Source: Candidatus Bathyarchaeota archaeon
GTDB taxonomy: Archaea; Thermoproteota; Bathyarchaeia; Bathyarchaeales; Bathycorpusculaceae
DNA: 64,000 nt
Reading direction: 5' to 3'
Assembly (NCBI GenBank): GCA_026014665.1
Contig: JAOZHX010000034.1
Span: 124,001 to 188,000, forward strand
Shown here: in pieces, positions 17,547-36,426 of the stretch
Layout: every line of letters begins with the position of its first letter
How positions within the stretch are numbered: the first letter of the stretch is position 1
Notes under the pieces: generated by a model
Told to the model about the DNA's origin: nothing
Database searches by the model: none
Seen by the model: the letters and a program-made list of their open reading frames with translations, nothing else
Position numbers and translations under genes: made by a program

Positions 17547-17565
17547 GCATACTTTTTAGGTATGC
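17547..17565 (-). promoter_or_regulatory. 5'-terminal leader hairpin of beta-propeller gene
   Basis: A perfect 6-bp stem (GCATAC / GTATGC) with a 7-base loop lies 27 bases before ATG 17520. A TATA-like TTTAAAA at 17591-17597 predicts transcription starting near 17568, so the mRNA would begin with this hairpin. Four other genes of the family have a different stem in the same position. The remaining bases up to 17787 show no gene. Confidence 0.55.
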
Positions 17566-17787
17566 GTAATGGATACCACCGTTTTGCCCCTTTAAAAGGC
17601 TTTCCCCAAATTAAATTCACGCTTGGTCTAAAGAACTCGAAATAGGTATGAACGTTAATTACGAGCTTACAAAAATTGCTATTCATATCATAAGAGAAAG
17701 CTAAAACCAGTTGTTCTGGTGCGATAAGGCTGCCTTCATGCTTTCAAACTAAACTACTCTATCCAAATTCTCTGATTGTTACTTATT

Positions 17788-17801
17788 AAAAAAAGAGGGG
17801 G
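17788..17801 (-). terminator. C/T-run terminator of the broken beta-propeller gene
   Basis: Minus-strand CCCCCTCTTTTTTT starts 23 bases after the stop codon and matches the pattern after the sister genes. Confidence 0.55.
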
Positions 17802-17823
17802 TGAATTGGATTACTCTTTTTTC

Positions 17824-19956
17824 TTATCGCTTTCTTAGTAGCAGTAGCACTACTATGACGCCTATGATGATTATTAGCACTGCAAGGCCGACGATTGCGG
17901 GAACAAAGTATAAATCGGCAAGCGAGGATGGGGGAGTAGCCGTTGGGGTTGGAGCTGCTTCACTGCCCATAAGCAGGGTTGTTTGGGTTTTTGATGGCCA
18001 GTATGCTCCTGAACCGCTGAATGATGCTGTTATGGTGTATTTACCTTCAATCGGAACCATATCGGAGGGCACTGAGTAGCTGAATGCACCAGTCGCGTCA
18101 GTCATTACAGTATCTACATGGGCGTTGCCGTTTGAGTCGACAAATGTCAGGATTATGGGTACTCCGGTTACATCGGTTGGCTCGGGGTTTTGCATGTAAA
18201 CGTATTCCATCCATGCAGTTTGGTCCTTATCAGAGACTACCGGAACGCCTTGTGGGAAGCGCATTGCAATGGCCGTTTGTTTTGTACCAGGAGATAAGTC
18301 GATGATTCGGCCTGTAACAATTGGTCTTTGACCGGCCGCAGTGAGGGGTTGCTGCATCGTTATGGATGTTGCGTCTTTGCCGAAAGCATAGATTTGGTTG
18401 TCGTAGGCATTTAGGGCTGTCATGTAGCCATCAGCAATGGGGATGCCTGCGCCAAAGCCGCCGCCTGCATTCCAGAAGGTGATGTTCCAGAGTGGTTCTC
18501 CTGTTGTTGCGTTAACTGCGCCTATTTTGAAACCGGGCTCTAGGCTAGGTCCGGGGCTGTGTTCAGATCCATACCAGTAGATGTTGCCTGCAGCAAATGT
18601 TCCCACGCTCATGGGTACATAGTCCCAATAGCCATTGTTGCCCATGCTTGTTGGTGTGGTCTGCCAGAGAAGGTTTCCGTTGGTTATATCGTAGGCATAT
18701 ATGACTCCTCCTTCCCCGATGGAGTCTCCACTATAGAGGACGCCGTTATAGATGCCGCCGGTGACACCATAACTGTGAAGGGATACTTCCGAGGGTGACG
18801 TCCAAAGTTGCTCGCCAGTTGTGGAGCTAAACGTTATCCATTGTGTTAGTTCTTTGATAAAGAGACTGTAAACACCTTCGCCTACGAAGCCGCTAAGGAG
18901 GGTTACATTGCCTGGCGGGTATGGTATTATCTTGCTCCACTTGTATTGACCCATACTATCAGGGGCTATACTGATGCCCATTGAAGCGATTGCATTGGGT
19001 GTTGGGAAGCTTGCCATGCCTAAGAGGGCTGTTGCGTTGCTGTAAACGGCGATTTGGTTTTGCTTATCAATCCCTAAGAGGCTCAGACCCATGGAGTTAC
19101 TGGGTCCAAAAAACCCTATGGTTGTTTGTTGAAAGGCTGCAGGAACACCGGTTGTATTGTAGATTGTTAAGCCAGAGTTAGCGCTGACTATACCACCCAG
19201 TGGAGGTCTCCACATCCAGTATCCATTTGCTACCGAAAGCGACGGATTTGTGTTTTGGATGCATTGAGTGCTGTTCCAGACCGTGACGGTCTTGAAATCT
19301 GGCGAGAAACTGAAGATTAAGTAGCTGCCAATTTGGTCCGTTATCGTGCTTGAAGCGCCGAAGATCGCTGCTCCCGCTGGAACACCGACTATGTCACATA
19401 TCCAGTTACCGCTGAAGGGATCATACATAGCCCAAACGTTCGAGCCGTTGGCTAAGGTGTAGGTGACCCATAGGTAGCTGATTAAGCCATGTTGGTTGGG
19501 TGATTCATAATCGAGTTCTTGGCCGAAACTAAGTTGCGGATAATTCTGTTTAGCGAAGCCGAATCCGAGCTGCTGGGTGGCTAGCGGGTCTTGCGTACCG
19601 TTGTTGTACCAGATCTGCTCTCCTGTTAGCAAGTCAACGCATTGGAAACCGTATTCAGGTGGATTTGGAGTGTTATAGTAGAGTCGCCCATGCATAATTA
19701 TTGGCGGTTGGAACATACCTTCGTATGAGAGGTATGAATAGTAGTTATCACCTCCGCTATCAATTGCAAGTGGCTGACCTCCGACGCCTCCGAAGTTGAT
19801 AGGTCGGGTCCATGCAATGTGAGCGGTAGTCGGCGGTTGTGTATAATCATTGATGTTTGCGCCAGGTATCATGGCCGCAAGCCAATCACCCATGATGTAT
19901 TGCCAGCTCTGGTGTCCACTTTGACTCACTGGATTACTCCAGAACTCTGTCGGCAA
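17824..19956 (-). CDS. C-terminal part of frameshifted surface beta-propeller protein
   Basis: This is 710 residues read from TTG 19956, but the same frame is open further upstream and continues the protein begun at 20522. Just upstream it reads SQTGTQYINDTF and then VTVQVVETPIPG, the same order as in the intact paralogue at 14665-17520. It carries the propeller (EFWSNPVSQSG, ESPNQHG, TTGEQLWTS), the C-terminal Ig-like domain (AWMEYVYMQNPEP, SGAYWPSK) and the membrane anchor ending LLLLRKR. One base missing from a run of five C (minus strand; 20068-20072) separates it from its signal peptide. It is either a sequencing error, a phase-variable tract or an early pseudogene. TTG 19956 is unlikely to be a real start because no export signal would remain. 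Confidence 0.8.
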   Translation of the reverse strand: MPTEFWSNPVSQSGHQSWQYIMGDWLAAMIPGANINDYTQPPTTAHIAWTRPINFGGVGGQPLAIDSGGDNYYSYLSYEGMFQPPIIMHGRLYYNTPNPPEYGFQCVDLLTGEQIWYNNGTQDPLATQQLGFGFAKQNYPQLSFGQELDYESPNQHGLISYLWVTYTLANGSNVWAMYDPFSGNWICDIVGVPAGAAIFGASSTITDQIGSYLIFSFSPDFKTVTVWNSTQCIQNTNPSLSVANGYWMWRPPLGGIVSANSGLTIYNTTGVPAAFQQTTIGFFGPSNSMGLSLLGIDKQNQIAVYSNATALLGMASFPTPNAIASMGISIAPDSMGQYKWSKIIPYPPGNVTLLSGFVGEGVYSLFIKELTQWITFSSTTGEQLWTSPSEVSLHSYGVTGGIYNGVLYSGDSIGEGGVIYAYDITNGNLLWQTTPTSMGNNGYWDYVPMSVGTFAAGNIYWYGSEHSPGPSLEPGFKIGAVNATTGEPLWNITFWNAGGGFGAGIPIADGYMTALNAYDNQIYAFGKDATSITMQQPLTAAGQRPIVTGRIIDLSPGTKQTAIAMRFPQGVPVVSDKDQTAWMEYVYMQNPEPTDVTGVPIILTFVDSNGNAHVDTVMTDATGAFSYSVPSDMVPIEGKYTITASFSGSGAYWPSKTQTTLLMGSEAAPTPTATPPSSLADLYFVPAIVGLAVLIIIIGVIVVLLLLRKR

Positions 19957-20039
19957 CGGATACGTTACGGATCCAGGAATGGGAGTTTCGACGACTTGAA
20001 CGGTTACGGGAGCTGAGTCTGCAGCGAGGAATGTATCAT

Positions 20040-20522
20040 TTATGTATTGAGTTCCAGTCTGAGAAGAGGGGGAGTCACTGGTTCCTGTGGATTGGTGCCT
20101 GTTATTTTCTGCGCAGGCAAGTGAAATGTGAATGAATAATTTCCCGTAGTATCAGGGACGTATGTCGTAAAAACCGTACCCACTGAATCAGACTCGAAGG
20201 GCCCAAGCGTTTTGTTTGAACCATCAGGCAAAGTTACGGTGATTGTACAACCAAGCCAGCGGTCACCGTATGCTCCCGTTGCTGTTGGGGGATAAGTGGC
20301 ACTCCAAGCGAACAGACTGATTGTTTGGCCCACACCTATGGGCGTTGGAAACGCAGTAATGTAGACATAGCTTGGGATCTGAAGCGGCGGAGTATGAGCA
20401 AGGGTTGAAGTTACCAGTACCGAAGCGATGCTGGTGGTCAACAATGCGAATAGAAGTAATGATGCAATTGCTTGTCTATGTCCAAAAAAAATTAGTAGAT
20501 TTAGGGTGCGAAAACTAGACAT
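20040..20522 (-). CDS. N-terminal part of frameshifted surface beta-propeller protein
   Basis: This is 160 residues with a signal segment (about 15-40) and the N-terminal Ig-like domain (VGVGQTISLFAW, GAYGDRW, SDSVGTVFTTYVP), closely similar to the start of the protein at 14665-17520. The frame then runs out after PVTPPLLRLELNT, which is out of register with the family. Reading six instead of five C at 20068-20072 joins it to the downstream ORF as one protein of about 893 residues. The start ATG 20522 has GGAGTGAG just upstream. A TATA-like TATTTAAAA at 20567-20575 predicts a start of transcription near 20545; only a weak AT-rich stem (20535-20545) lies there. Confidence 0.8.
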   Translation of the reverse strand: MSSFRTLNLLIFFGHRQAIASLLLFALLTTSIASVLVTSTLAHTPPLQIPSYVYITAFPTPIGVGQTISLFAWSATYPPTATGAYGDRWLGCTITVTLPDGSNKTLGPFESDSVGTVFTTYVPDTTGNYSFTFHLPAQKITGTNPQEPVTPPLLRLELNT

Positions 20523-20590
20523 TTTCTCACTCCTTTATTCGATAATAGTCAATCAGATGTGATAAGTATTTAAAAATTTCTTGCAACACA

Positions 20591-20711: not shown

Positions 20712-21743
20712 ATGCTACTGATGCAGAGGGCAAAAAAGCTTGATGCGCTCGATGCGAAAATTCTCCACATACTGCTAAAAGATTCAAGAACTAGTTTTAC
20801 AAAGATGGCACAAGAATGCAAAATATCGGTTGTTGCTGTAAAAAGACGATATGAGCGCATGAAAAAAGCAGGTGTAATTAAGGGGGAATTGATGTTAGTA
20901 AACCCCTACAGTTTGGGTTATAAGTGTACTGTTGACTTAGGGATTGTAACTTCCGTGGAAAATGAGAAAGAAGTTATAGATTTTTTGCGTAGCAAACCAT
21001 TCATATCTGGTGCGAACGGCAATTTTGGCAGGTACAACATCCAAGCTTTTTTGGTCTTGCAGGATATTGAGAAGTTGACTGGGATACTCGGGGAAATTGA
21101 ATCCCACCCCAAAGTTGTACGTATAGATAGTCTCATTTGGGCTGAATCGGTGAATATGGATCACACAGAAAACTTGGAAATTCCACCCTTGAAACAAACA
21201 CAAAGGGATTATAGACCTCTCGCGGTAAACCGCAAAGAAGAGGAGCTCGATGAGATTGATAGACGGATAGCGGCTATACTTTCGATGAATTCGCGGATGC
21301 CCTTTAGAAAAGTTGCAAAGCAGGTAGGCATCTCAACACGCAGCGTAATTCAGAGGTTCAACGAACTCAAAAAATCAGTGTTAACTAAATCAACTCTATG
21401 CATCGATTTGAATAAACTCGGATACAACGCCATGGCACACATATTCATCAAGGTCTCAAACAGAAGCCAAATGCAGGAAATCTATAACCAAATTTTTCAG
21501 ATTCCAAACCTAATAATAGCAATCAAATTGATCGGACCCTATGACGTTAGAGCTTTGGTAGCCCTTAAGAATTTTGAGGAATTGTTTGAGGTTACAGAGA
21601 GATTCCGTCAGATCAAGGGCATAGATAAAGCGGATACCTACATATACAGGGCTTTTTGTTTTTGGCCAATGAACCTTTTTGCACCGCTTTTATGGACACA
21701 CGATCAATATATCCATCCTTTCTCAAAAGGCGCACCCTGCTGA
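20712..21743 (+). CDS. tandem Lrp/AsnC-type transcription regulator (two HTH-RAM units)
   Basis: This 343-residue protein has two Lrp/AsnC modules in a row. Unit 1 has a helix-turn-helix (LDALDAKILHILLKDSRTSF, then VVAVKRRYERMKKAGVI) and a ligand-sensing alpha/beta domain to about residue 150. Unit 2 starts near 178 (DEIDRRIAAILSMNSRMPF, VAKQVGISTRSVIQRF). Standard Lrp proteins are about 150 residues and work as dimers and octamers, so this one is a built-in dimer. The siroheme decarboxylase relatives of this fold are not indicated, because their HxYNxWF-type motif is absent. It is transcribed divergently from the beta-propeller gene at 20522 and upstream of a radical SAM/SPASM gene, which makes either a plausible target. 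Confidence 0.88.
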   Translation: MLLMQRAKKLDALDAKILHILLKDSRTSFTKMAQECKISVVAVKRRYERMKKAGVIKGELMLVNPYSLGYKCTVDLGIVTSVENEKEVIDFLRSKPFISGANGNFGRYNIQAFLVLQDIEKLTGILGEIESHPKVVRIDSLIWAESVNMDHTENLEIPPLKQTQRDYRPLAVNRKEEELDEIDRRIAAILSMNSRMPFRKVAKQVGISTRSVIQRFNELKKSVLTKSTLCIDLNKLGYNAMAHIFIKVSNRSQMQEIYNQIFQIPNLIIAIKLIGPYDVRALVALKNFEELFEVTERFRQIKGIDKADTYIYRAFCFWPMNLFAPLLWTHDQYIHPFSKGAPC

Positions 21744-23134: not shown

Positions 23135-25888
23135 TTATTTCTTTCTGAGTATGAGAAGTGTGGATATGGCTATTGCGATGATTATGGCTATGCCTATTCC
23201 TAAGATGTAGGTTTCAGTCGGTGGAATAGCGGTCACTGGGTAGGGGGCTTGAGTTGGTGCTTCATTGCCTATTGCCAAGTAGGTTGAGGCGCTTGAGGGA
23301 CCGTATGCGTTGGAGCCTTTGAATTCAGCGATGATTTGGTATGTGCCTGGTACTTCAGGGGTATATGCTATGCCGTAGTTGCCGTATATGTCGCTTGTTG
23401 TTGTACCGATTGAAATCCAGTTACCGTTGGGGTCAATCGCATGGAGTTCGACATCAACGCCTTGGGCATTTGTTGGTTTGGGGCGTCCTCGGAACATGTA
23501 TTCCATCCAAGCATCCATGTCTTTGTCTGAGATGGCAGGTGTACCTTTGAGAGCTTTGTCGATGTTGCCGTTGATATCACGTCGTCCATATGGTGAATCG
23601 TCTGTAACTGTGCCAGTGATCATGACGCTAGAGCCTAGAGCGGGGATGGTTTGTGGTGCAGATACTGTAGTAGCGCTTGAGCCTCTGCCATAGCAGTAGA
23701 TTTGCTGGTCGTGAGAGTCAAGGACTAGTAGTCGTTCGTCTGCTAGAATTGGTGCACTGCTTGGCCAGCAGGTTAGCATCCAAACTTGTTCACCGTTAGA
23801 AGCGTTGACACACCATATTTGAGCATCTCGTCTGATTGGATTGTTGACTGAGTGTTCGCTGGAGTATAGGTATAGTAGCCCATCGCCTGAGAGACAGCCG
23901 AATGATGTTGGTGTATTTTGGTATGGAGTTTCATCTAAGCCGACGTTTGGAGCGGTCCAGTTCCAGAGGAATTTACCTGTCTTTGCTTCAAATGCCTGCA
24001 CGACTCCACCGTAGCCACCGCAATCAATAAGTTGCCCGTTGTAGACAATCTTTGCGCCCATGCCGTAGAAGCTGAATTGAGGTGCTGGTGGACTTGTCCA
24101 GAGAAGTTTACCAGTTGAGAGTTCATAGACGTAGGTCAGCAGAGTCATTGGGTTTTGGTACCAGAAGATATCTGCCTGTGCATTGACGCCGCCGAAGGCT
24201 ATGTCTTTGCTGCTGTATTGTTCAGATTGACCGTAGGCGTCTCCGATGCCTGCGGGTGAAGTAAAGTTGTAGCTGTATAGTTCTTTTCCGACTTGGCCTG
24301 GGACGAGGCTAATTGCGACAGTTCGGCCTGGGAGAACAACTGAGCCGTTATTAAAGCCAGCGTAGATTACGATGAGCCTGTCGTCTGGGATTACTTGGCG
24401 GATGGCAGCGCCTGAGGGTAGCCCGGTTGAGGTGCTGAGCAAGCCTAGGCTGATGCTTGCGTTGGCTGAGAGACCGTTCCGTCCGTTATAGGTATAGTTT
24501 AGGTTGGGTCTCCACATCCAGTGTGCGTTAGTTCCCGACCCTGTATCGTGTGCAACGTATGAATCATACATGATAACTTGTGAGGTGTTCCATACTTGTA
24601 AGTACCATTGTGGCGCTGCGTTTGTGCCTAAGTTGACGATGTTATACCGTAGTATGCTGCCTTCGTTTCCAACTGCTGAAGTGCCTGTTGCACCCTTAGT
24701 GACGCTACGTCCACTATGGGTTTCTGACCATGTGACGTTTGCTATGCTGCAGATGTATTCGCCCTTGAAATCATCGTACATGTCCCATGTTCCGGTTTTC
24801 CCAGTTGAGGTAACCCAGTAGTAGCCAGTTGTGCCGTGTTGATTTGGATTATCGACAACTAGAACTTGGCCGAATGCTGGTGCACCATAAGGTATGCTAC
24901 CAGTGGAGGAGAACGAACCGCCTGCACCTGAAACAGCGCCTGTTGTATTGCGGTATTCAATTGTTTGTCCACTGTAGAGGTCAACAATGTACCAGCCTTC
25001 GCGTGGATTCACTGAATCGCTATAGTAGACTTTGCCGTTGAGAACGATTGAGGGTCCACCGAAACTTTCGTATGATTGTCCGCTGTAGTAGGAGTTATCG
25101 GGGCTTGAGCTGTTAACTGTTGCTTGCCCACCTGCGATGCCGCCGCTGGTGTAGGATTTTGTCCAGAGTATGTGAGAGCTTGCTGGTCCTCTTGTGAAGG
25201 GGTTGTATCTGCCGTTGTTGCCGAACTGTGCAAGTTCATTGGCGTTTAACCATTGACCCATCACGGTGGCTCCCCAACCGCGGTTTGTGTCGTAGACTGG
25301 GCGAGTCCAGTAGTCGGTGGGAAGTGGTGTTTCATTGTATCTTGGCACTTGCTCGGTAGTGACAGTTAAAGTTACAGTCATACTCAACGCTGACTCAAAA
25401 ACAACTCCTTTTGGATCAAATCCACTAATAGGTTGTCCTGATGGCCACCAACCTGCACCATTCGGAGCAACGAGGCCTCTGCTTTGACCGCCATCAATGA
25501 CGTGTTTTTGCATTATGGCTTGGATAATGTAAGTTCCAGGTTCGGGTGGAACGTAGTTTGTATATCCTGCACCTACAGGGTCCGATTCAATGTTTTTGAT
25601 AGTGTCGTTTGTTCCATCCGGTTTTATGATGTTTACGTCGAAGGTCCAGCGGTCACCATAGTCGCCTAAAGCAGTGGGGGGCAATTTATCTGCCCAGAAA
25701 GCGATTATTACATTTTGCCCAACACCGACAGTCGGAGGTGCAACGGAAACATAAACAGTGCTTAGGTAGTATCTCATGCGGGATGTTTGAGCGCTTACGC
25801 TTGGCGAGAGAGCGATAGAGAAAGCAATGATTAATACTAGACTTATTGCGATTAAAGATCCGAATTTTTTACTTTTTTTGGTTTTCAT
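23135..25888 (-). CDS. large surface PQQ-like beta-propeller protein, C-terminally anchored
   Basis: This protein is about 917 residues from ATG 25888, which follows GGAAGACAAAAAA. The frame extends to 25942, but that part crosses the leader hairpin and lacks a signal. Order: signal segment, Ig-like domain (VGVGQNVIIAFW, GDYGDRW), family motif RYNETPLPTDYWTRPV, and propeller blades (NPREGWY, NPNQHG, AKTGKFLWNW, SSEHSVNNPIRRDAQIWC). The C-terminal Ig-like domain has DAWMEYMFRGRPKP and VELHAIDPNGNW, and a membrane helix ends in LILRKK. It is closest to the next gene upstream (26110-28869), with long stretches of similar DNA, so the pair is a recent tandem duplication. Unknown ligand; outside the cell by topology. 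Confidence 0.9.
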   Translation of the reverse strand: MKTKKSKKFGSLIAISLVLIIAFSIALSPSVSAQTSRMRYYLSTVYVSVAPPTVGVGQNVIIAFWADKLPPTALGDYGDRWTFDVNIIKPDGTNDTIKNIESDPVGAGYTNYVPPEPGTYIIQAIMQKHVIDGGQSRGLVAPNGAGWWPSGQPISGFDPKGVVFESALSMTVTLTVTTEQVPRYNETPLPTDYWTRPVYDTNRGWGATVMGQWLNANELAQFGNNGRYNPFTRGPASSHILWTKSYTSGGIAGGQATVNSSSPDNSYYSGQSYESFGGPSIVLNGKVYYSDSVNPREGWYIVDLYSGQTIEYRNTTGAVSGAGGSFSSTGSIPYGAPAFGQVLVVDNPNQHGTTGYYWVTSTGKTGTWDMYDDFKGEYICSIANVTWSETHSGRSVTKGATGTSAVGNEGSILRYNIVNLGTNAAPQWYLQVWNTSQVIMYDSYVAHDTGSGTNAHWMWRPNLNYTYNGRNGLSANASISLGLLSTSTGLPSGAAIRQVIPDDRLIVIYAGFNNGSVVLPGRTVAISLVPGQVGKELYSYNFTSPAGIGDAYGQSEQYSSKDIAFGGVNAQADIFWYQNPMTLLTYVYELSTGKLLWTSPPAPQFSFYGMGAKIVYNGQLIDCGGYGGVVQAFEAKTGKFLWNWTAPNVGLDETPYQNTPTSFGCLSGDGLLYLYSSEHSVNNPIRRDAQIWCVNASNGEQVWMLTCWPSSAPILADERLLVLDSHDQQIYCYGRGSSATTVSAPQTIPALGSSVMITGTVTDDSPYGRRDINGNIDKALKGTPAISDKDMDAWMEYMFRGRPKPTNAQGVDVELHAIDPNGNWISIGTTTSDIYGNYGIAYTPEVPGTYQIIAEFKGSNAYGPSSASTYLAIGNEAPTQAPYPVTAIPPTETYILGIGIAIIIAIAISTLLILRKK

Positions 25889-25911: not shown

Positions 25912-25944
25912 GAGTAACGGCTAAAAGAAAGCAAGCCATCACTC
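25912..25944 (-). promoter_or_regulatory. 5'-terminal leader hairpin of beta-propeller gene
   Basis: Two 4-bp stems (GAGT/ACTC outside, GGCT/AGCC inside) separated by a 3x3 internal loop enclose an 11-base loop, 24 bases before ATG 25888. A TATA-like TTAATTAAA near 25971-25979 predicts transcription starting near 25948, so the hairpin would be the first structure in the mRNA. Confidence 0.5.
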
Positions 25945-26067
25945 GCGGAACCTGATTTATAGTCTAGATATTAATTAAATTTGTGGCAGTCAAAATTTGA
26001 GCAAACGAAATTTGAAACAAAAATCAACTTGATTTTTCCTAAAATTTGACCTGATTAATGAAAAAAT

Positions 26068-26109: not shown

Positions 26110-28869
26110 TTATGGTCGTTTCCGAAGCAGAAGGAGAGCTAAGATTGCGCCTACAACTATGATTGCAACGATGATGCCTGCGATGGCTGGAACAAAGTAC
26201 ATGTCAGCGATGGATTGTGGTTGAGCTGTTGGTGGAGGTGCGGTTGGTGCTTCATTGCCTACTGCTAAGTAGGTTGTGCCGAAGGATGGTCCGTATGAAT
26301 TGGATCCTTTGAATTCAGCGACGATTTGGTATGTGCCAGGTACTTCAGGTTTGAATGAGATGCCATATTTGCCAGCTGAGTCACTGGTAGCGGTGCCGAT
26401 TGGGATCCAGTTGCCGTTGGGGTCAATTGCGTGCAGTTCCACATCTACGCCTTTAGCGTTTGTGGGCATCGGTCTTTGGTGGAACATGTATTCCATCCAA
26501 GCATCCATGTATTCGTCGGAGATGGCGGGTGTTCCTTTCAAAGAGAAGTCAACGCTGCCTGCAAGATTTCGTCTTCCGGTCTGTGTTTGGTCTGTTACGG
26601 TGCCGGTGATCATGACACTAGCGCCTAGAGCTGGAACGGTTTGTGGTGCTGAAACGGTTGTTGCGCTTGGGCCTTTGCCAAAGCAGTAGAGTTCGTTATC
26701 GTGTGAATCAACAACTAAGAGGCGTTGATCTGCAACGATTGGTGCAGAACTTGGCCAGCAAGTTAGCATCCAAACAAGCTTTCCACTGGTTATGTTTAGA
26801 CACCAAATTTGTGCGTCTCGCCTGATTGGGTTGTTGACTGAGTGTTCACTAGAGTAGAGGTATAGTAGACCATCACCTGTAAGGAAGCCATAGGATAGCG
26901 GTGAATATTGGTAGGGAGTTTCGTCTAAGCCTACGCTTGGAGCAGTCCAGTTCCAGAGGAATGTGCCAGTCTTGGCGTCAAACGCTCTGACAACGCCGCT
27001 GTAGCCACCGCAGTCAATGAACATGCCATTGTAGCAGACAGCTGTGTAGCCACCGTAGAATTGGAATTGCTCCGCTGGTGGTGCGATCCAAAGTTGGTTT
27101 CCAGTTTCGAGGTCATAAACGAAGTATCGTAGAGTCATCGGGTCGTAGTACCAGAAGATGCCTGCCTCGGCGTTAACGCTTTGGAAGGCTGTGTTCTTTG
27201 AACTAAATTGCTCGGCTTGGCCGTATGCATCGCCTACGTTTGGTGGAGCTGTAAAGTTGTAGTTCTTGAGAATTGTTCCGACTTGACCTGGTTTGAGGCT
27301 TAGGATGACGACAGTGCCTGGAACGCTGACGGTGCCATTGTTGGAGCCTGCGTAGATTACGATGAGTTTGTCCTCAGGAATTACTTGGCGAATGGTTGCG
27401 CCACTTTGTAGTGGGAAGTTAGGTATGCTTACGTTCGCTGAGTAGCCATAAGCGCCGTCATAGGTTCGGTTGAGTTCGGGTCTCCACATCCAGTTGACGT
27501 TGCTGCCAGAGCCAGTTTCGTGTATTTGGTAGTTGGGGTACATGATTGCCTGTGAAGTGTTCCAGCATTGGAGGTACCATTTTGGCGATGATGTGGTTCC
27601 TAAGTTGACAACTTGGTATCGTAGTATGCTTCCTTCAGTACCGACGGCTGGGGTGTATGGTGCTGCACCGAACTGTGCAACTGCGCCTGAAACCCATGTT
27701 GGAATGTTGTTTATGCTGCAGATGTAGTTGCCTGAGAAGTCATCGTAGAGGTCCCATGTGGCTGATTTTCCAGTGGCTGTAACCCAGTAGTAGCTGAGAG
27801 TGCCGTGTTGGTTTGGAGAGTCATAAGTTAATACCTGGCCAAATGCTGGTGCACCGTAGGGTATGCTGCCTGTGCTCGAGAATGCTCCGCCCGCGCCTGT
27901 AACTGGACCTGTTGTGTTGCGGAAGTATATTGTTTCTCCTGTGTATAAGTCGACACAGTAGAAGCCTTCACGTGGGTTAGTCTGGACGCTATAGTAGATT
28001 TTACCGTTCATGACTATTTGCGGACCGCCGTAGCCTTCGTAGGATTGACCGCTATAGTATGAGTTGTCAGGGCTTGAGCCGTTAACAGTTGACACACCGC
28101 CGGCGATGCCACCTGTAAAGTATGGCCTCGTCCAAAGGATGTGAGAACTTGCCGGACCAGTAGTGTAGGGGTCGTATCTGCCACCGTTGGCATATTGGTT
28201 TAGCTCACTAGCGCCAAGCCATTGACCCATAGCGTAGGTGCTCCAGCCTCTGTTAGCGTCGTATACTGGACGAGTCCAGTAGTCATTCGGAAGTGGGGTT
28301 TCCTGATAGCGCGGTACTTGTTGGTCTGTGACAGTTAGGGTTACTGGGGTGCTAAGGGCAGCTTCGAAGACGACGCCGATGGGTGACCATCCAGGAGGAA
28401 CAAGGTTAGGATTGGGGGGTGAACCAGAAGGCCACCAGCCAACACCTGCAGGACTAACTAGACCTCTGCTTTGGCCGCCGTCGATTACGTGTTCTCGCAT
28501 GATAGCTTGGATAGTGTATGTGCCGGTTTCAGTTGGAGTAAAGGTTGTGTAGGCTGCACCTACAGGGTCAGACTCAATGCCAGTGATTGTATCGTTACTT
28601 CCATCGGGTTTAACGATGTTTACATCAAACGTCCAGCGGTCACCATATTCGCCTATGGCTGTTGGTGGTAGCTTATCACACCAGAAGGCGATGAGAACAT
28701 TTTGGCCCGTACCGACTGTATTGGGAGCAACTGAAACGTAAGCCATGTCAGCGTACCGCCTCATGTAAGCTGCACTAGCTGCGGGTGAAATAGCAATCGA
28801 CACAATTATAGTTATGGTTAGGGTTGCTGCAATCAAAGAAGCTATAGATTTATTTTTAGATATTTTCAT
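26110..28869 (-). CDS. large surface PQQ-like beta-propeller protein, C-terminally anchored
   Basis: This 919-residue protein has a signal segment (about 8-30) and an Ig-like domain (VGTGQNVLIAFW, GEYGDRW, then TGIESDPVGAAYTTFTP). Family motif RYQETPLPNDYWTRPV precedes a propeller (SPNQHG, AKTGTFLWNW, SSEHSVNNPIRRDAQIWC). A second Ig-like domain (DAWMEYMFHQRPMP, VELHAIDPNGNW, GSNSYGPS) and an anchoring helix before LLLLRKRP follow. It is the sister of 23135-25888. Start ATG 28869 follows GGAAGAGAAAAAAT. The strong leader hairpin at 28897-28932 and the T-rich terminator frame it as a single-gene transcript. Function is not known. Confidence 0.92.
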   Translation of the reverse strand: MKISKNKSIASLIAATLTITIIVSIAISPAASAAYMRRYADMAYVSVAPNTVGTGQNVLIAFWCDKLPPTAIGEYGDRWTFDVNIVKPDGSNDTITGIESDPVGAAYTTFTPTETGTYTIQAIMREHVIDGGQSRGLVSPAGVGWWPSGSPPNPNLVPPGWSPIGVVFEAALSTPVTLTVTDQQVPRYQETPLPNDYWTRPVYDANRGWSTYAMGQWLGASELNQYANGGRYDPYTTGPASSHILWTRPYFTGGIAGGVSTVNGSSPDNSYYSGQSYEGYGGPQIVMNGKIYYSVQTNPREGFYCVDLYTGETIYFRNTTGPVTGAGGAFSSTGSIPYGAPAFGQVLTYDSPNQHGTLSYYWVTATGKSATWDLYDDFSGNYICSINNIPTWVSGAVAQFGAAPYTPAVGTEGSILRYQVVNLGTTSSPKWYLQCWNTSQAIMYPNYQIHETGSGSNVNWMWRPELNRTYDGAYGYSANVSIPNFPLQSGATIRQVIPEDKLIVIYAGSNNGTVSVPGTVVILSLKPGQVGTILKNYNFTAPPNVGDAYGQAEQFSSKNTAFQSVNAEAGIFWYYDPMTLRYFVYDLETGNQLWIAPPAEQFQFYGGYTAVCYNGMFIDCGGYSGVVRAFDAKTGTFLWNWTAPSVGLDETPYQYSPLSYGFLTGDGLLYLYSSEHSVNNPIRRDAQIWCLNITSGKLVWMLTCWPSSAPIVADQRLLVVDSHDNELYCFGKGPSATTVSAPQTVPALGASVMITGTVTDQTQTGRRNLAGSVDFSLKGTPAISDEYMDAWMEYMFHQRPMPTNAKGVDVELHAIDPNGNWIPIGTATSDSAGKYGISFKPEVPGTYQIVAEFKGSNSYGPSFGTTYLAVGNEAPTAPPPTAQPQSIADMYFVPAIAGIIVAIIVVGAILALLLLRKRP

Positions 28870-28896: not shown

Positions 28897-28932
28897 GATC
28901 GAATAAGCCCTTGGAGGGACTTATCTTCGATC
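28897..28932 (-). promoter_or_regulatory. 5'-terminal leader hairpin of beta-propeller gene
   Basis: This is the longest of the leader stems: GATCGAA/TTCGATC (7 bp), a 2-base bulge, TAAG/CTTA (4 bp), a 1-base bulge, CCC/GGG (3 bp) and a 5-base loop. It lies 28 bases before ATG 28869. A TATA-like CTTAATTAG at about 28962-28971 predicts transcription starting near 28940, just before the hairpin. Confidence 0.6.
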
Positions 28933-29341
28933 AGCTGGATTTTTCATAAAAGAAAAAGGAACTAATTAAGCTTGTGCATTTTAGGCTTACTCGGCTGTTT
29001 TTTTGTTACAAAGATATACAATCTATAATCTGGATGCTAATTTTGTGATATTTATAAAAATAAATCTGCGTTTATATTACGTATTTAATCATCTGACTTT
29101 ACGTTTAAAGTGAGTAACCTCTTGCTAAACAAGATTAAGCTTTGCTTGGGTCAAGTGGGCATGATGGGAAATTGTTGGTTTTGTCCGACTACATAGCTCA
29201 CGACTTTCCAATCTGGCGTTTGGGCGTTGGAATAGCAATGTTGCTGTTTCAGAAGTTTGCATGTTTTGCCTATTTAATAGAGTATACATATTAGGGTAGA
29301 AATTCAATTGAATATTTAATTAACGCTGGATGGTTGGTTAG
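28933..29341. other. intergenic stretch between divergent genes
   Basis: This holds the promoter of the minus-strand beta-propeller gene at its left end and presumably that of the plus-strand gene at 29342. It is AT-rich up to about 29110. A 28-codon plus-strand ORF from GTG near 29110 ends in CWFCPTT but has no convincing signals. I see no RNA gene or repeat. Confidence 0.5.
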
Positions 29342-30603: not shown

Positions 30604-33345
30604 TTATGGTCGTTTTCTGATCATCAGGGCTAGCACTACTGCTACCACGACGATCAAGATGAATAGGCCTGCGATTGCTGGAACGAAGTAGGTTTCCGAG
30701 AGCAGTTGTGGTTGTGCTGTTGGTTCGGCTGTTGCTTCGGGTGCTGGTTCAACAGTTATGTAAGTTGTTGCTTTCGATGGGCCGTATGCTTTGGAGCCTG
30801 CGAAGGATGCGATGATTTGGTAGTCGCCTGGGACTTCAGGTACGAAGGATATGCCGTAGTTGCCTTGTGCGTCGCTTGTGGTTTTGCCTATGGGTACGTA
30901 GTTGCCGTTGGGGTCGATAGCGTTGAGCTCTACTTCGACGCCTTTAGCGTTTGCTGGGAATGCTTGTTGCATGAATTTGTATTCCATCCATGCTTGCATG
31001 TCTTCGTCAGAGATTGCTGGTGTGCCTTTGAGTGAGGAGACTAGTACGTTGTTTGTGTCGCGTTTGCCATAGGGTGTTTGGTCCGTAACGGTGCCTTTTA
31101 GTAACACTTTTTGACCGTTTACTGATACGCTGTTTTCTGCTTCAACTGTGGTGGCGCTTGGTCCTCTGCCGAAGGCATATAGTTGCATATCGAAGTAGTT
31201 GAGGCCGACTAGTATGCCATCACCCATGATGATGTTTGACGATGTGGGTGACATTCCGCCGAAGAAACCAAGGATCTTCCAGATTTCCTCGCCTGTTTCA
31301 GCATTTAAGCAGCGTAGGTTGGGGCCTCTGTATAGTGGCTGAGTGGGTGAGTGTTCACCGCTGACAGTGTAGAGTTTTCCATCGGAAAATAGAACGATGC
31401 CCAGAGTGTATACACCACCATAGGCTGATTCTGTGCCTATGCTGAGAGGTTCGTATGTCCATTTTACTTTTCCTGTCTTAACGTCGTAGGCTGTAATGAT
31501 TCCTCCGTATCCGTGGCTGTATAGGGTGTGGTTGAAGTAAGCTGAGCTCATTCCATAGTACATGAATTGAGTTTCTGGTTCGCTTTTCCAAACCAACTGT
31601 CCAGTCTCCATGCTGTATCCGAATCGTTCAAGTGTCCTCGTTTTGTGGAAGCAAATCATGTTGTCTTCTGGATAAGTTCCGGTGAGGCTTACGGTTTCAC
31701 CGTCTGCAGAAGATGGAGGGGTAAATTCTTGCCGTAAAAGCTGTGTTCCTACTCTACCAGGTTCGAGGCTGATCTTTATCACAAATCCTGGAACTGTATG
31801 TGTTCCGTTGTTGAATCCTGCGGCTGTAAAGACTGCATATTCGTCTTGTTTAATCACAGAGAGGCTGGCCGTTTGATTGGAAATCGCGTTTCGTGCACCT
31901 AGGAGGCTAGGTATAGTCACGTTTATCAACGACCAGAATACGTTTCCGTCATGGACGTAGTTATATGCGAGCGCTCCGAGGTAAGCAGGGGTGCCACCGA
32001 AGGTGCCGCCTGCAGGTCGCCATTGCCAGTATCCAGTTCCGAGTTGACTGGAAACCATCGTGCCTGCTGATGCGTTCCATACTGAAAGACGGTAATCAGG
32101 ATGGGTTGTGTTGCCATAGTTAGTTGCAGAATAGCGCAGTATGCTTCCGTCTTTACCATAAACAGCAGTACCGCCAGATGATACGTTGGCGATATAGCAG
32201 ACTGTTTGCATGGTGTAGCCGTCTAGCATTTCCCAGATGGTTCCAAATTGGTTGGTTGTTGCAGTTCGGTTAATGCTTCGAGTGACGCCTGACCCAGTGC
32301 CCATGTAGATGACGGAGCCGTTGGCGAATTGTTTGACGTTTGGCACCTGAATTATCTCAGGTAAGGCACTGCTGGAGATTGATCTGTAAAGGTATGTGAA
32401 GCCTCCGTGCTGGTTGGGTGATTCGTAGTTGTAGACTTGCCCAAAGGATGGCAGAGACGCGTTATAGTCGCGGGATAATAGTTCACCTGTATAGAGGTCG
32501 ACAATTTCCCAGCCTTTTGTGCCGTGTGCTGTAAAACGTGGAGAATAATGTAGCTGACCATTAAGGGCTAGTCCACTCCAACCAATTCCTTGGTAGTGTT
32601 GTGTTTGAAGCCCCATGGTTTCATATGTGTCCTCTCCATAGCCACCAGCGTAGTATTGCCTTGTCCATAGTATGTGGGGCGACTCGGTTCCTTTGCCACC
32701 TGCATAGTTGGTTGTCATGCCTGCGGTTCCCCGTGGGTAGTTTTGGGCTGCGCCGCCGAGCCAGTTTCCTGCAAGAACATACCATTCGTGGTTTGCGGTG
32801 TTTATAGGTCGAGTCCAGTAATCGTTTGTTAGAGGTGTCTCAACCCAAACTGGTTGCGGCTCTTCCGTGACTGTCAAAGTGGCAACAGGGCTCCAATCAG
32901 GTTCATAATATCGATCTATTGTTGCTGATTTTTTAGTTTCTCCTGGGAAGTAGCACTGCAATGTATAGTTGCCAGCAGTGAGGGGTGTATATATAGCCCA
33001 TGTTGCGCCAACTGGGTCGGTGCGAGGCATCGAGAGTGTATCGTTCGTGCCATCGGGTTTTGTGATGTAGACTATCATCGGGTTGTTCCATGCGGCTCGT
33101 CCGTTAGGTGAAGGGATTTCCAAGTTTTGCTCGCCTACATCAGGAGGCATGTCTGCAGTCCAAGTTACTACAATCACTTCTTGTCCAACACCGACGACTT
33201 TTGGAGAACAACCGACATAGACAAATGACCGATAGTTAGTGGTTTGGGCAGCAGTTTGAGGTAGTATAGCAATAAATGAAGCAGCGATTGTCAGTATTAG
33301 AAATGCTGTTATCAGGGGTAGTTTTTTGTTTTTTGGTTTATTCAT
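30604..33345 (-). CDS. large surface PQQ-like beta-propeller protein, C-terminally anchored
   Basis: This 913-residue protein starts at ATG 33345 after AAAGGAATTGAAAAA. It has a signal segment (about 8-33) and an Ig-like domain (VGVGQEVIVVTW), but with SPNGRAAW where the other paralogues have a GDRW motif. The propeller has VETPLTNDYWTRP, ESPNQHGGF, DVKTGKVKWTY and SGEHSPTQPLYRG. A C-terminal Ig-like domain (QAWMEYKFMQQAFP, VELNAIDPNGNY, GSKAYGPS) precedes a helix before LMIRKRP. It is the most divergent of the right-hand four. It has its own 8-bp leader hairpin and terminator, so it is probably transcribed alone. Confidence 0.92.
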   Translation of the reverse strand: MNKPKNKKLPLITAFLILTIAASFIAILPQTAAQTTNYRSFVYVGCSPKVVGVGQEVIVVTWTADMPPDVGEQNLEIPSPNGRAAWNNPMIVYITKPDGTNDTLSMPRTDPVGATWAIYTPLTAGNYTLQCYFPGETKKSATIDRYYEPDWSPVATLTVTEEPQPVWVETPLTNDYWTRPINTANHEWYVLAGNWLGGAAQNYPRGTAGMTTNYAGGKGTESPHILWTRQYYAGGYGEDTYETMGLQTQHYQGIGWSGLALNGQLHYSPRFTAHGTKGWEIVDLYTGELLSRDYNASLPSFGQVYNYESPNQHGGFTYLYRSISSSALPEIIQVPNVKQFANGSVIYMGTGSGVTRSINRTATTNQFGTIWEMLDGYTMQTVCYIANVSSGGTAVYGKDGSILRYSATNYGNTTHPDYRLSVWNASAGTMVSSQLGTGYWQWRPAGGTFGGTPAYLGALAYNYVHDGNVFWSLINVTIPSLLGARNAISNQTASLSVIKQDEYAVFTAAGFNNGTHTVPGFVIKISLEPGRVGTQLLRQEFTPPSSADGETVSLTGTYPEDNMICFHKTRTLERFGYSMETGQLVWKSEPETQFMYYGMSSAYFNHTLYSHGYGGIITAYDVKTGKVKWTYEPLSIGTESAYGGVYTLGIVLFSDGKLYTVSGEHSPTQPLYRGPNLRCLNAETGEEIWKILGFFGGMSPTSSNIIMGDGILVGLNYFDMQLYAFGRGPSATTVEAENSVSVNGQKVLLKGTVTDQTPYGKRDTNNVLVSSLKGTPAISDEDMQAWMEYKFMQQAFPANAKGVEVELNAIDPNGNYVPIGKTTSDAQGNYGISFVPEVPGDYQIIASFAGSKAYGPSKATTYITVEPAPEATAEPTAQPQLLSETYFVPAIAGLFILIVVVAVVLALMIRKRP

Positions 33346-33370: not shown

Positions 33371-33391
33371 TAGATAGGTGTTGCCTATCTA
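33371..33391 (-). promoter_or_regulatory. 5'-terminal leader hairpin of beta-propeller gene
   Basis: A perfect 8-bp stem (TAGATAGG / CCTATCTA) with a 5-base loop lies 26 bases before ATG 33345. GTATATAAA at 33416-33424 is a strong TATA box predicting transcription from about 33394, three bases before the stem. Confidence 0.65.
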
Positions 33392-33596
33392 GAGGCTCTT
33401 TTATTTAATCAAGTTGTATATAAAACTAATCCAATTTACCAAAATCGTACTTCAATCAAAATTTTTATTTCAATATATATCTTTAATCTAAATCCTCATA
33501 TTATTTAATTGAATAATAATAGTGTTATAAAGTTTAAATTCAGGCACTAAACTGGATTTCCATTAATTGTTTTGATTATAATACGCCATAAAAGTT

Positions 33597-33613: not shown

Positions 33614-33630
33614 ATACTTGGTTTTAGAAG

Positions 33631-36369
33631 TTATGGACGTTTTCTTAGTAACAACAGTGCAAGTATAGCGCCTACTATGGCTATTGCTATGATTATGCTG
33701 ATTATGCCTGGTATGAGGTACATGTCGGCGACAGTTTGCGGTTGTTCGGTGGGGGCAGTGGTGGATTGTGGTGCTTCCTCTACTGTGAGGTAGGTGGATG
33801 AGCTTGAGGGGCCGTATGCGTTTGAACCTTTGAATTCAGCGATGATTTGGTATAAGCCGGGGACTTCAGGTTTGAATGAGATGCCATAGTTGCCGTATAC
33901 GTCGCTGGTGGCGTTGCCCATGGGTATCCAGTTGCCGTTGGGGTCAATTGCGTGTAGTTCAACATCGACGCCTTTAGCGTTTGTTGGCATGGGTCTTTGG
34001 TGGAACATGTATTCCATCCAAGCATCCATGTCTTTATCTGATATAGCGGGTGTTCCTTTGAGTGGTTTATCTAAGTTGCCGTTGATGTCATGTCGGCCTG
34101 AGGGAGATTGGTCGGTTACTGTGCCAGTGATTGTTACACTTGTTCCCAGTACCGGGGCGGTTTGGGGTGCGGAGACTGTGGTTGCGCTTGGTCCTCTGCC
34201 TATGCAGTAGATTTGGTTGTCATGGTTGTCGAGGAATAGGATGCGGCTGTCTGAGATGATGACTTTGGAGAGGGCGTTGTTTGCTGTGTTTGGATATGCC
34301 ATTAGTCGCCAGATTAGTTCGCCTGTGTCTATGTCTAAGCAGAAGATGGCTCCGTCGCGTCTAATGGGCGAGGTTTCGCCTGCCCAACCTGTTGAACCAT
34401 GGAGGTAAACTAAGTTCCGTCCAGTTACTGCATCGTCGATGAAGAAGCACAGACTCAATGGTGTGTAGGTTAATCCCTGAGTTTCGAGGTTGCCCTGCAG
34501 GGGTGCTGTCCAGTTCCACAGGGATTCGCCTGTTCTTGCGTCGAAGCAGTGCATTTCGCCCATGGAGCCTAAGGTGAAGACTTTGCCGTCATGTGCAGTA
34601 ACAGACATTCCTTGGAACGCAAATTGGTTGTCTAATTGGTAGGTCCATAGTTGGTTTCCTGTTTTGAGGTCGTACACCCAGATTTTTCCAGTTACTCTTT
34701 CAGTGTACCAGAAAACGTTGTTTTGGTATGAGACGCCTCCCAATGAGACTCCTCCGCCGTTTGTTCCGTTGTTGACTGGATAATTGTCTGATGCTAGTGG
34801 TGCATTGAAGGTTACGTCAAGGATTGGGGTTCCCCATTGGCCTGGTTTTAGGCTGTAAGCTCTCATGAAACCGGGAGCGTTTCCTCTGGCGTCGTTTCTG
34901 CCTGCTGTTCCAACTAGAACGTATTCATCGGGTACGATGTCTCGGATGGTTGCGGTTTCGTTGAGGACTGAGTTGCGTGGTCCGTATAGGCTTGCAACGG
35001 ATATGTTCATCGTGTAGCCGTTGTACCCGTTGTAGATTGCACCGTTTGCGCTCGTGGACATGCTGACAGTTGTGGCTCCGGGTCGCCAGAACCAATATGC
35101 GTTGTCGCCTGTTGCTCTGTTAGGCACATCGGTGGTCCCGTTGATTAGTGTGGCTGGATAGGCAATGCCGTAGTTGGGTCGCCACCATATGGCTTGTGTT
35201 GAGTTCCAGATTTGCATGTAGTAGTTTGGCGCCGCAGTGGTTCCGAGGTTTACGATGTTGATGTAGCAGATGCTTCCGATTGAGTCTCGGAACTGTGTGC
35301 CTGAGGTGGACACGTTAGCGATTTTGCATATCGATTTTCCAGTGAATCCATCGAGCATTTCCCAAGTTGCTAATCCTGATGCCGTGGTGGTTCCACTCGG
35401 TAGTGTGACGCCGCTTGTTCTCCAGAGGTATGAGAAGCCTCCATGCTGGTTGGGTGAATCGTAGTTTAGGATCTGAGCTAATGAAGGTATGGCGGCATCG
35501 CCAAGAGTGTTGTTTTCATAGTAGATGGTTTCGCCGTTGTAGAGGTCTATACAGAACCAGCCGTAACGTGGTGGGTTCTGAACTTGGTAGTAAGCTTTGC
35601 CCTCCAGAGTTATCAGGGGGCTCGAGAAGCCTTCGTAGGCTATGCCGTTGTAGTATCCGATGTCGCCATATCCGCCCATGATGCCACCTGTCCAGTATGA
35701 GCGAGTCCAAAGAATGTGGCTGCTTAGTGGACCTGACTGGTTGGGAACTCCTCTATTCCTTAGGATTGATTCGTAGTAGGTTCCGCCTAACCATTGACCC
35801 ATGACAGCGTTGCCCCAGCCTCGGTTTGCATCGTTAATGGGTCGTGTCCAGTAGTCGTTTGGAAGTGGAGTTTCTTGGTAGTTAGGTATTGGTTCTTGTT
35901 GTACAGTGAAAGTGTTGGGTCTGCTTATGCTTGGTGCGTAGGTGTCGTTGACATATTGATTATTTTCGTTGCCGGGGGCACCTGTTAGTGTTTTGCCTGG
36001 GAAGCTGGCTTGAATCGTGTAAACTCCAACTTCGTCTGGTACGTATGCGATGTAGGCTCCTCCTACTGGGTCAGATATGATTGGACCCTTTGTTTCGTTG
36101 ACACCGCTTGGTTTGGTTATTGTTAGGTAAAAGGTCCATCGGTCGCCCATTTCACCTGTGGCTGTGGTTGGATAGGCGTTGAGGTACATTTCAATAAGGA
36201 TTGTTTGGCCAACACCTACAACTGGTTGTCCTGGAAAGACGTAGCAGTATGTAGTGAAATTGGCTCCTGGGTAGCGCGCGGTAGTTGTTTGTGCTGAGAT
36301 TAATATTGCTGCTGAAGTAACTAACAGGGTAATTAAAGAAATCGAGACAGCCCTTTTATTATTTAACAT
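33631..36369 (-). CDS. large surface PQQ-like beta-propeller protein, C-terminally anchored
   Basis: This protein is about 912 residues from ATG 36369 (MLNNKRAVSISLITLLV). The frame reaches 36441, but the extra 24 codons cover the leader hairpin and would spoil the signal peptide. It has an Ig-like domain (VGVGQTILIEMY, GEMGDRW), motif NYQETPLPNDYWTRP, and a propeller (SPNQHGGF, DLKTGNQLWTY, DARTGESLWNW). A C-terminal Ig-like domain nearly identical in places to that of 26110-28869 (DAWMEYMFHQRPMP, VELHAIDPNGNW) precedes an anchor ending LLLLRKRP. The shared C-terminal third points to duplication or gene conversion. It is probably displayed on the cell surface; the ligand is unknown. Confidence 0.9.
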   Translation of the reverse strand: MLNNKRAVSISLITLLVTSAAILISAQTTTARYPGANFTTYCYVFPGQPVVGVGQTILIEMYLNAYPTTATGEMGDRWTFYLTITKPSGVNETKGPIISDPVGGAYIAYVPDEVGVYTIQASFPGKTLTGAPGNENNQYVNDTYAPSISRPNTFTVQQEPIPNYQETPLPNDYWTRPINDANRGWGNAVMGQWLGGTYYESILRNRGVPNQSGPLSSHILWTRSYWTGGIMGGYGDIGYYNGIAYEGFSSPLITLEGKAYYQVQNPPRYGWFCIDLYNGETIYYENNTLGDAAIPSLAQILNYDSPNQHGGFSYLWRTSGVTLPSGTTTASGLATWEMLDGFTGKSICKIANVSTSGTQFRDSIGSICYINIVNLGTTAAPNYYMQIWNSTQAIWWRPNYGIAYPATLINGTTDVPNRATGDNAYWFWRPGATTVSMSTSANGAIYNGYNGYTMNISVASLYGPRNSVLNETATIRDIVPDEYVLVGTAGRNDARGNAPGFMRAYSLKPGQWGTPILDVTFNAPLASDNYPVNNGTNGGGVSLGGVSYQNNVFWYTERVTGKIWVYDLKTGNQLWTYQLDNQFAFQGMSVTAHDGKVFTLGSMGEMHCFDARTGESLWNWTAPLQGNLETQGLTYTPLSLCFFIDDAVTGRNLVYLHGSTGWAGETSPIRRDGAIFCLDIDTGELIWRLMAYPNTANNALSKVIISDSRILFLDNHDNQIYCIGRGPSATTVSAPQTAPVLGTSVTITGTVTDQSPSGRHDINGNLDKPLKGTPAISDKDMDAWMEYMFHQRPMPTNAKGVDVELHAIDPNGNWIPMGNATSDVYGNYGISFKPEVPGLYQIIAEFKGSNAYGPSSSSTYLTVEEAPQSTTAPTEQPQTVADMYLIPGIISIIIAIAIVGAILALLLLRKRP

Positions 36370-36398
36370 TTTCACTTTTCTTTTTTCTCCTTTTATTT

Positions 36399-36426
36399 GC
36401 TGGCAAGGGATTGAAAGATGCCAAGC
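36399..36426 (-). promoter_or_regulatory. 5'-terminal leader hairpin of beta-propeller gene
   Basis: A 7-bp stem with one bulged base (GCTGGCA / TGCCAAGC) and a 13-base loop lies 30 bases before ATG 36369. A TATA-like CTTAAAA at 36450-36456 predicts a transcription start near 36428, two bases before the stem. Confidence 0.5.

What the first reader, a model, noticed from the sequence alone, without database searches (positions are those of the whole stretch)
17547..36426. A hairpin at the 5' end of the mRNA of five surface beta-propeller genes
Five of six large beta-propeller genes in the array have a stem-loop 24-30 bases before the start codon: 17547-17565, 25912-25944, 28897-28932, 33371-33391 and 36399-36426. 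In each, a TATA-like box lies about 25-35 bases beyond the far end of the stem, so the hairpin would be the first thing transcribed. The stem sequences differ completely, while position and layout (hairpin, short spacer, GGA(A/G), A-rich run, ATG) are kept. That is what selection on structure rather than sequence would leave. 5'-terminal stems protect mRNA in bacteria (for example ompA); I know of no described archaeal counterpart for surface proteins. The sixth gene (start 20522) has only a weak AT stem and is the frameshifted copy.
Basis: partly seen in the sequence, partly recalled or inferred. Interest (0 to 1): 0.82.

Follow-up and report, generated by a model that had tools for sequence, protein, structure and literature searches.

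The report
Hairpins starting archaeal surface-protein mRNAs
In a genus of uncultivated archaea, many messages for a large family of probable cell-surface proteins seem to begin with a short RNA hairpin whose letters change while its pairing and its place at the front end are kept, which looks like a built-in end-protector of a sort so far known from bacteria.

Summary
All five stems exist; alone, C, D and E beat shuffled leaders, A and F do not. Of 24 propeller leaders in this genome 14-16 fold better than shuffles, against 27 of 346 other genes; of 142 in 15 genomes of the genus, 58 do. The stems act as RNA: G-U outnumbers A-C 48:17 (background 46:51) and sense folds better than antisense. 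In 13 alignable leaders 10 of 15 pairs change on both sides (0 of 500 shuffles). A covariance model found 12 further sites in 31 genomes; 11 precede a propeller gene or its remnant. TATA-like boxes lie about 27 nt before the stem (33 of 51, permuted mean 10.7), so the stem probably starts the transcript, leaving the Shine-Dalgarno open. Best reading: a 5'-terminal stem-loop shielding long mRNAs, as ompA's does in E. coli. Start site and function are inferred; no transcript was measured. The element is patchy within the genus and the model finds none of this genome's own stems.

The parts
17547..17565 (-). leader hairpin of gene A, GCATACCTAAAAAGTATGC
   Evidence: not significant alone (p 0.085); TATA-like CTTTTAAA 17591-17598, centre 29.5 nt from the stem foot
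14665..17520 (-). propeller gene A (SD-supported ATG 17520; longest ORF starts 17550)
   Evidence: (PQQ_2)
25912..25944 (-). leader hairpin of gene C, 11 pairs
   Evidence: p 0.005-0.010; TATA-like TTTAATTA 25972-25979 (31.5 nt), rival CTATAAAT 25955-25962 (14.5 nt)
23135..25888 (-). propeller gene C (SD-supported ATG 25888; longest ORF starts 25942 inside the hairpin)
   Evidence: 0 of 200 shuffles; TATA-like CTTAATTA 28963-28970 (30.5 nt) or CTTTTATG 28945-28952 (12.5 nt)
26110..28869 (-). propeller gene D
33371..33391 (-). leader hairpin of gene E, TAGATAGGCAACACCTATCTA, 8 pairs
   Evidence: p 0.005-0.020; TATA-like TTTATATA 33417-33424 (29.5 nt)
30604..33345 (-). propeller gene E
36399..36426 (-). 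leader hairpin of gene F, bulged, GCTTGGCA..TGCCAGC
   Evidence: not significant alone (p 0.14); TATA-like CTTTTAAG 36450-36457 (27.5 nt)
33631..36375 (-). propeller gene F (SD-supported GTG 36375, or ATG 36369; longest ORF starts 36441 upstream of the hairpin)
17824..20522 (-). gene B, split over two frames (17824-19956 and 20040-20522), leader without hairpin; TATA-like TTTAAATA 20567-20574

Best explanation
The stems belong to a real RNA element found in front of many propeller genes of this archaeal genus (that of Candidatus Bathycorpusculum, Bathyarchaeia): a hairpin that begins within a few nt of the predicted transcript start, followed by a mostly unpaired A-rich stretch with the Shine-Dalgarno. 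SHOWN by computation: excess of structure, sense-strand (RNA) nature, compensatory change in the alignable part of the family, link to propeller genes, a preferred distance from TATA-like boxes, open SD. INFERRED: the transcript starts at the stem, the proteins are on the surface, and the stem works as a 5'-terminal stem-loop that keeps 5' end-dependent nucleases (an aCPSF2/RNase J-type beta-CASP enzyme) from loading, so that these long mRNAs (coding part about 2.7-2.9 kb) live longer while the SD stays free. What is selected is pairing at the 5' end; stem letters, loop size and distance to the SD drift.
For: Structure: 14-16 of 24 own-genome propeller leaders at p<=0.05 in three shuffle runs against 27 of 346 other genes, 5 of 95 with SD and free upstream space, and 0 of 24 for the stretch -146..-80 of the same genes; 58 of 142 leaders in the genus. 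RNA level: G-U 48 vs A-C 17 in 70 stems from 103 leaders, background 46 vs 51 in 100 stems from 346 genes; sense folds better than antisense, p=1.7e-6; both hold without 15 operator-bearing leaders. Covariation: 10 of 15 pairs changed on both sides, score 0.492 vs 0.263, 0 of 500 shuffles. Search: of 12 non-training sites of model R1 10 precede a propeller gene and one its remnant. Position: 33 of 51 TATA-to-foot distances at 23-33 nt, permuted mean 10.7, largest 22 in 20,000. SD pairing 0.29 vs 0.53 in 200 other SD genes. 5'-terminal stem-loops protect bacterial mRNAs (PMC3997798, passages); Sulfolobus has 5'-3' decay by aCPSF2, blocked by aIF2-gamma at the 5' triphosphate (PMC3792030, passages); this genome has beta-CASP genes.
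Against: No transcript start, half-life or probing data. The TATA score is weak: in other genes boxes are hardly commoner near starts than further up (15/64 vs 11/64; 35/117 vs 31/117), and 23 of 58 significant leaders have the top box outside 23-33 nt; the interquartile ranges to stem foot, stem end and start codon are alike (14.2, 14.8, 16.8), only the MADs differ (3.0, 6.5, 8.5). The element is patchy: 1 of 7 leaders in G008, G015 and G018. Models R1 and R2 find none of this genome's own stems, so covariation is shown for relatives, not for the window's stems. In pairwise comparison 32 of 63 changed stem pairs are broken. The beta-CASP proteins score below the curated NCBIfam cut-offs. L240 is a site without propeller.
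Confidence: 0.55

Rival explanations
1. Translation aid: the hairpin acts as a spacer or standby structure that takes up upstream sequence and leaves the A-rich SD stretch single-stranded for the ribosome; mRNA life is not its point.
For: SD region less paired than in other genes (0.29 vs 0.53); stems end a median 23 nt before the start.
Against: TATA distance is tighter to the stem's 5' foot than to the start codon (MAD 3.0 vs 8.5), whereas a ribosome aid should be placed from the SD. An A-rich leader would be open without a stem.
Confidence: 0.22
2. Protein or ligand site: an RNA-binding factor recognises the hairpin and controls the propeller genes together.
For: One gene family, partly shared stem sequence (GGCAA..TTGCC and GAGCGAGAGC types).
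Against: Loop size and letters vary widely between paralogues; no Rfam match; position set from the transcript start rather than fixed sequence.
Confidence: 0.15
3. DNA palindrome: the inverted repeats are operators for a transcription factor and do not act as RNA.
For: Some propeller promoters of the genus do carry letter-conserved palindromes (CTCACGATANGTGAG).
Against: Stems lack common letters and fixed spacing; G-U exceeds A-C 48:17 and sense folds better than antisense, which DNA sites would not show; both persist without operator-bearing leaders.
Confidence: 0.04
4. Chance stems in AT-rich leaders, picked by eye.
For: A and F are not significant alone; 27 of 346 other genes also pass p<=0.05.
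Against: Family-wide excess, covariation and the model search.
Confidence: 0.02

Closest known systems
5'-terminal stem-loops of E. coli ompA and papA mRNAs (Bouvet and Belasco 1992, Emory et al. 1992, Arnold et al. 1998, Bricker and Belasco 1999; seen as references and passages in PMC3997798)
   Same: stem at or close to the 5' end, SD left free, outer-surface proteins in long-lived mRNAs (the last recalled)
   Different: archaeal, across a paralogous family, other nucleases (no RNase E or RppH tested for here); stability not measured
B. subtilis 5' hairpins that stabilise mRNA against RNase J (e.g. aprE leader, Hambraeus et al. 2002; passages and references in PMC3997798)
   Same: 5' hairpin guarding against a beta-CASP 5'-3' nuclease is the proposed mechanism
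   Different: bacterial; measured there, inferred here
Lactobacillus acidophilus slpA S-layer leader (Boot et al. 1996, seen only as cited in PMC6482533, passages)
   Same: surface-layer gene whose mRNA leader can fold into a stem-loop that may protect it
   Different: one gene, large stem-loop, bacterium
Methanosarcina slmA1 S-layer 5' UTR (PMC3361143, passages)
   Same: archaeal surface-layer gene with a mapped mRNA 5' end, TATA box and potential RNA structures in the UTR
   Different: leader sequence highly conserved between species; structures' role 'currently unknown'; no 5'-terminal hairpin family described in the passages
mtaA/mtaC long 5' UTRs of a cold-adaptive methanogen (mentioned in PMC5378194, passages)
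   Same: archaeal 5' UTRs that add transcript stability
   Different: long UTRs of methanogenesis genes, effect at low temperature

Membership tests
5'-terminal stem-loop mRNA stabilisers (ompA type) | stem begins within a few nt of the mRNA 5' end | tested here: inconclusive
   only by TATA distance: 33 of 51 at 23-33 nt, permuted mean 10.7; estimated foot at -2 to +6 in the 35 leaders inside that range; no mapped 5' end
5'-terminal stem-loop mRNA stabilisers (ompA type) | pairing matters more than sequence | tested here: met
   covariation in 10 of 15 pairs; stems of paralogues differ
5'-terminal stem-loop mRNA stabilisers (ompA type) | ribosome-binding site not paired by the stem | tested here: met
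   mean pairing of SD region 0.29 vs 0.53 in other genes; 5 of 58 main hairpins reach -14 or nearer
5'-terminal stem-loop mRNA stabilisers (ompA type) | stem prolongs mRNA life | not testable with these tools
   needs half-life measurement
RNA thermometer or riboswitch hiding the RBS | stem pairs with SD or start | tested here: not met
   (folding at 37 C only, no alternative states)
Transcription-factor operator (DNA palindrome) | symmetric on both DNA strands, no G-U preference | tested here: not met
   G-U 48 vs A-C 17; sense better than antisense p=1.7e-6
Families in Rfam 15 | match at gathering score | tested here: not met
   0 in the window; 20 loci gave only three tRNAs

The most novel reading that the evidence does not exclude
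An archaeal lineage has evolved an mRNA end-guard defined by position and pairing alone: a hairpin at the first transcribed bases of a multigene surface-protein family, free to change its letters, doing against an archaeal 5'-3' exonuclease what 5'-terminal stem-loops do in bacteria. It would be a first family-wide case in Archaea, arisen independently of the bacterial ones.
Probability: 0.45. Interest if true: 0.8.

Novelty: new variant of a known kind. Interest (0 to 1): 0.64.

Why it matters
How archaea set mRNA life is poorly known. Sulfolobus has a 5'-3' exonuclease (aCPSF2) and a factor that guards 5' triphosphates (PMC3792030, passages), but I came across no described structural guard at archaeal 5' ends. 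Here is a natural set of 142 leaders in one genus, with and without stems, in front of one gene family, so the question can be tested directly: swap stems, break and restore them, measure half-life. It is also a case in which pairing and position are kept while sequence largely is not, with a covariance model usable for part of the family.

Tried and rejected
DNA palindrome: rejected by G-U/A-C asymmetry and the sense/antisense comparison. RBS-hiding switch: not met, SD open. General feature of secreted proteins: not supported, 3 of 21 non-propeller genes with a signal-peptide-like start (median z -0.49, my own crude predictor). Known RNA family: none. Plasmid relative of the array DNA: no match.

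What failed or was weak. A 20-row alignment with own-genome stems was too poor to use. The six-row count was one column out of register (46.0% paired); its +1 slide gives 88.9% but few changes, so I do not rely on it. R1 and R2 find nothing in the own genome (only 150 candidates per genome are scored), and in 51 own-genome and G006 loci only one match at E<=1 (L092, E 0.35). R2 (23 sites at E<=0.01 in 10 of 32 genus genomes) re-finds 22 of its training rows plus L240, so only R1's 12 non-training sites count as a test; some of those (e.g. L247) are close paralogues of training rows in the same genome. R2 found nothing in 54 genomes of other genera of the order (stricter filters). Calibration of the TATA spacing on SD-less genes was thin (15 of 64 with a box, 4 of them at 28-29 nt), and boxes were nearly as common further upstream (11 of 64; 31 vs 35 of 117 for SD genes). 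In one search my script labelled 43 leaders 'outside-genus'; that is not established, since some records of that search are of the genus; they have 6 of 43 at p<=0.05, median z -0.28. The pairwise count uses some leaders many times. One search stopped on a script error and was completed.

Rows dropped. Of the 31 own-genome matches I used 24 leaders, leaving out L007 (body of split gene B), L027-L031 and one match without locus. Of relatives I used only part: 79 leaders (whose printout was cut) and 39 of 40 more (L196 too short), out of more matches than one search lists; L055 and L066-L073 were not analysed. Of the 52 named loci I tried 48; 45 gave new leaders, 43 after two duplicates were removed. 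Own-genome starts were chosen by hand, the others by script.
Full report
What the window is. It lies in a 2.37 Mb archaeal genome in 36 contigs. Relatives found by protein are Candidatus Bathyarchaeota. The same-genus genome G004 has a contig of the same length (148,276) as WQVG01000001.1, Candidatus Bathycorpusculum acetigenerans, and its leader L053 equals that record's L175, so the window belongs to that genus (inference). The array holds six propeller genes on the minus strand; five intact ones and the body of split gene B match Pfam PQQ_2, the short N-terminal piece of B matches nothing. They have a signal-peptide-like start and a C-terminal hydrophobic stretch with an RK-type end; surface location is inferred from this.

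Observation. The five stems exist where stated. For A, C and F the longest ORF starts in or upstream of the stem, but SD-supported starts lie downstream, so the stems are read as leaders. Against 200 shuffles C, D and E are significant singly, A (0.085) and F (0.14) are not. C and D are 69% identical as proteins, yet their stems share no sequence.

From five to a family. The own genome has 24 usable propeller leaders, 18 of them outside the array. Folding -80..-14 gives a median z of -2.0 to -2.2 and 14, 15 or 16 of 24 at p<=0.05. Other genes (window plus 400 kb of contig C15, simple ORF caller) have median z 0.10 and 27 of 346; those with SD and free upstream space 5 of 95. The stretch -146..-80 of the same propeller genes gives 0 of 24. 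In 118 leaders of 14 other genomes of the genus 44 are significant, 58 of 142 in all; many in G006 (13/27), G013 (7/14) and G012 (5/8), few in G008, G015 and G018 (1/7 each).

RNA, not DNA. A stem finder that treats G-T and A-C alike found 48 G-U and 17 A-C in stems of 70 of 103 leaders (p=1.5e-4), and 46 and 51 in 100 of 346 other genes. Sense leaders fold better than antisense (p=1.7e-6). Both hold after 15 leaders with operator-like palindromes are removed (p=1.1e-6; 67 vs 25, p=1.4e-5).

Covariation. Thirteen leaders from six other genomes (G003, G005, G010, G011, G012, G014) align by sequence. In a 15-pair helix 88.7% of cells pair, 10 pairs have changes on both sides, the covariation score is 0.492 against 0.263 in shuffles (0 of 500 reach it), and slid helices fall to 40-47%. 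The rows were picked because they have stems, which inflates 'paired' more than the agreement of changes. With 24 distinct rows fitted to the model, 12 of 15 pairs change on both sides (leans towards the structure). Pairwise, in 17 leader pairs, 31 of 63 changed stem pairs keep pairing (28 by a change on one side, 3 on both) and 32 are broken.

Blind test. Model R1 from these 13 was run on 31 genomes: 24 sites at E<=0.1, 12 of them training rows. Of the 12 others, 10 stand directly before a gene matching the window propellers; L245 stands before a cut-off piece that keeps only a propeller-like signal peptide, and L240 has no propeller behind it. No site lies in the own genome. R2 gave no hit in 54 genomes of other genera in the order.

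Position. With TATA boxes chosen without regard to the stem, the box centre is 27.5 nt (median, MAD 3.0) from the stem's 5' foot, against MAD 6.5 to the stem's end and 8.5 to the start codon; the interquartile ranges (14.2, 14.8, 16.8) differ little, because a third of boxes are misplaced or absent (35 of 58 fall at 23-33 nt). Without operator leaders 33 of 51 fall there; permuting boxes among leaders gives 10.7 on average and at most 22. With boxes sought upstream of the stem the share at 24-33 nt is 39 of 60 for propellers and 9 of 36 for background stems (p=2.8e-4). That an archaeal TATA centre lies about 26-27 nt before the start site is recalled; it puts the foot of those 35 stems at -2 to +6. 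The SD is less paired than in other genes (0.29 vs 0.53).

Mechanism. A stem fixed to the transcript's front, with free letters, free loop and open SD, is what a 5'-terminal stem-loop needs. Bacterial cases protect mRNA from 5' end-dependent decay (PMC3997798, passages). Archaea have 5'-3' decay by aCPSF2, blocked in Sulfolobus by aIF2-gamma at the 5' triphosphate (PMC3792030, passages). This genome has a 418-aa beta-CASP protein that aligns with the catalytic part of aCPSF1 and carries RMMBL, and a second RNase J-like one, both under the curated NCBIfam cut-offs; their activity is inferred. I commit to 5' end protection (0.55), with a translation aid as first rival (0.22).

Novelty. Ten searches of open-licence papers brought up no such family in archaea; most subscription papers are not held there. 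Potential structures in the Methanosarcina S-layer UTR, role unknown, are the nearest (PMC3361143, passages); 5' UTRs of Sulfolobus slaA and slaB raise protein yield, mechanism open (PMC11627041, passages). It works like a known bacterial kind; membership hangs on mapped 5' ends and half-lives, which I could not test. It is therefore a new variant of a known kind.

Noticed in passing
L256-L276; own genome G000:C12:30014-30028 and 33187-33201; none in the window: A letter-conserved palindrome CTCACGATANGTGAG: 21 exact sites in 9 of 31 genus genomes, 0 for the reversed control. By N-terminal resemblance 19 of 21 lie next to a propeller gene (not L261, L275); at 7 sites a gene for a similar membrane-like protein (MDPYxFQTFR..) runs the other way. 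Looks like a shared operator of part of the family.
   Followed up: partly
own genome, contigs C2, C4, C12, C13, C14, C15, C20, C26: A large paralogous set of secreted propeller genes: 31 matches in the own genome, about 24 near full length, and 9-39 matches in each of 18 same-genus genomes; what so many variants are for is open.
   Followed up: partly
window about 55774-55853, between divergent genes: A 15-pair inverted repeat (GACTGTAGAAGTACA..) between two divergent genes; probably a DNA operator.
   Followed up: no
window, upstream of the minus-strand gene with start near 4204: A 13-pair stem before a gene for a secreted protein with the text ACVGDSIT (lipase/esterase-like by memory); the strongest hairpin among the non-propeller secreted genes sampled.
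   Followed up: no
window 20712-21743: A gene reading away from gene B whose start looks like an Lrp/AsnC-type regulator (by eye, no domain search); a candidate regulator of the array.
   Followed up: no
L107, L121, L079 (G010, G013, G018), about 60-80 nt before the start: Another nearly letter-conserved palindrome (ACTCTCTCGCAGAGAGT) before orthologous propeller genes, imperfect in L079; more like an operator than an RNA stem.
   Followed up: no
G034:C92, L245: A leader hairpin of the family still stands before a cut-off propeller start (signal peptide only), a decayed copy.
   Followed up: no
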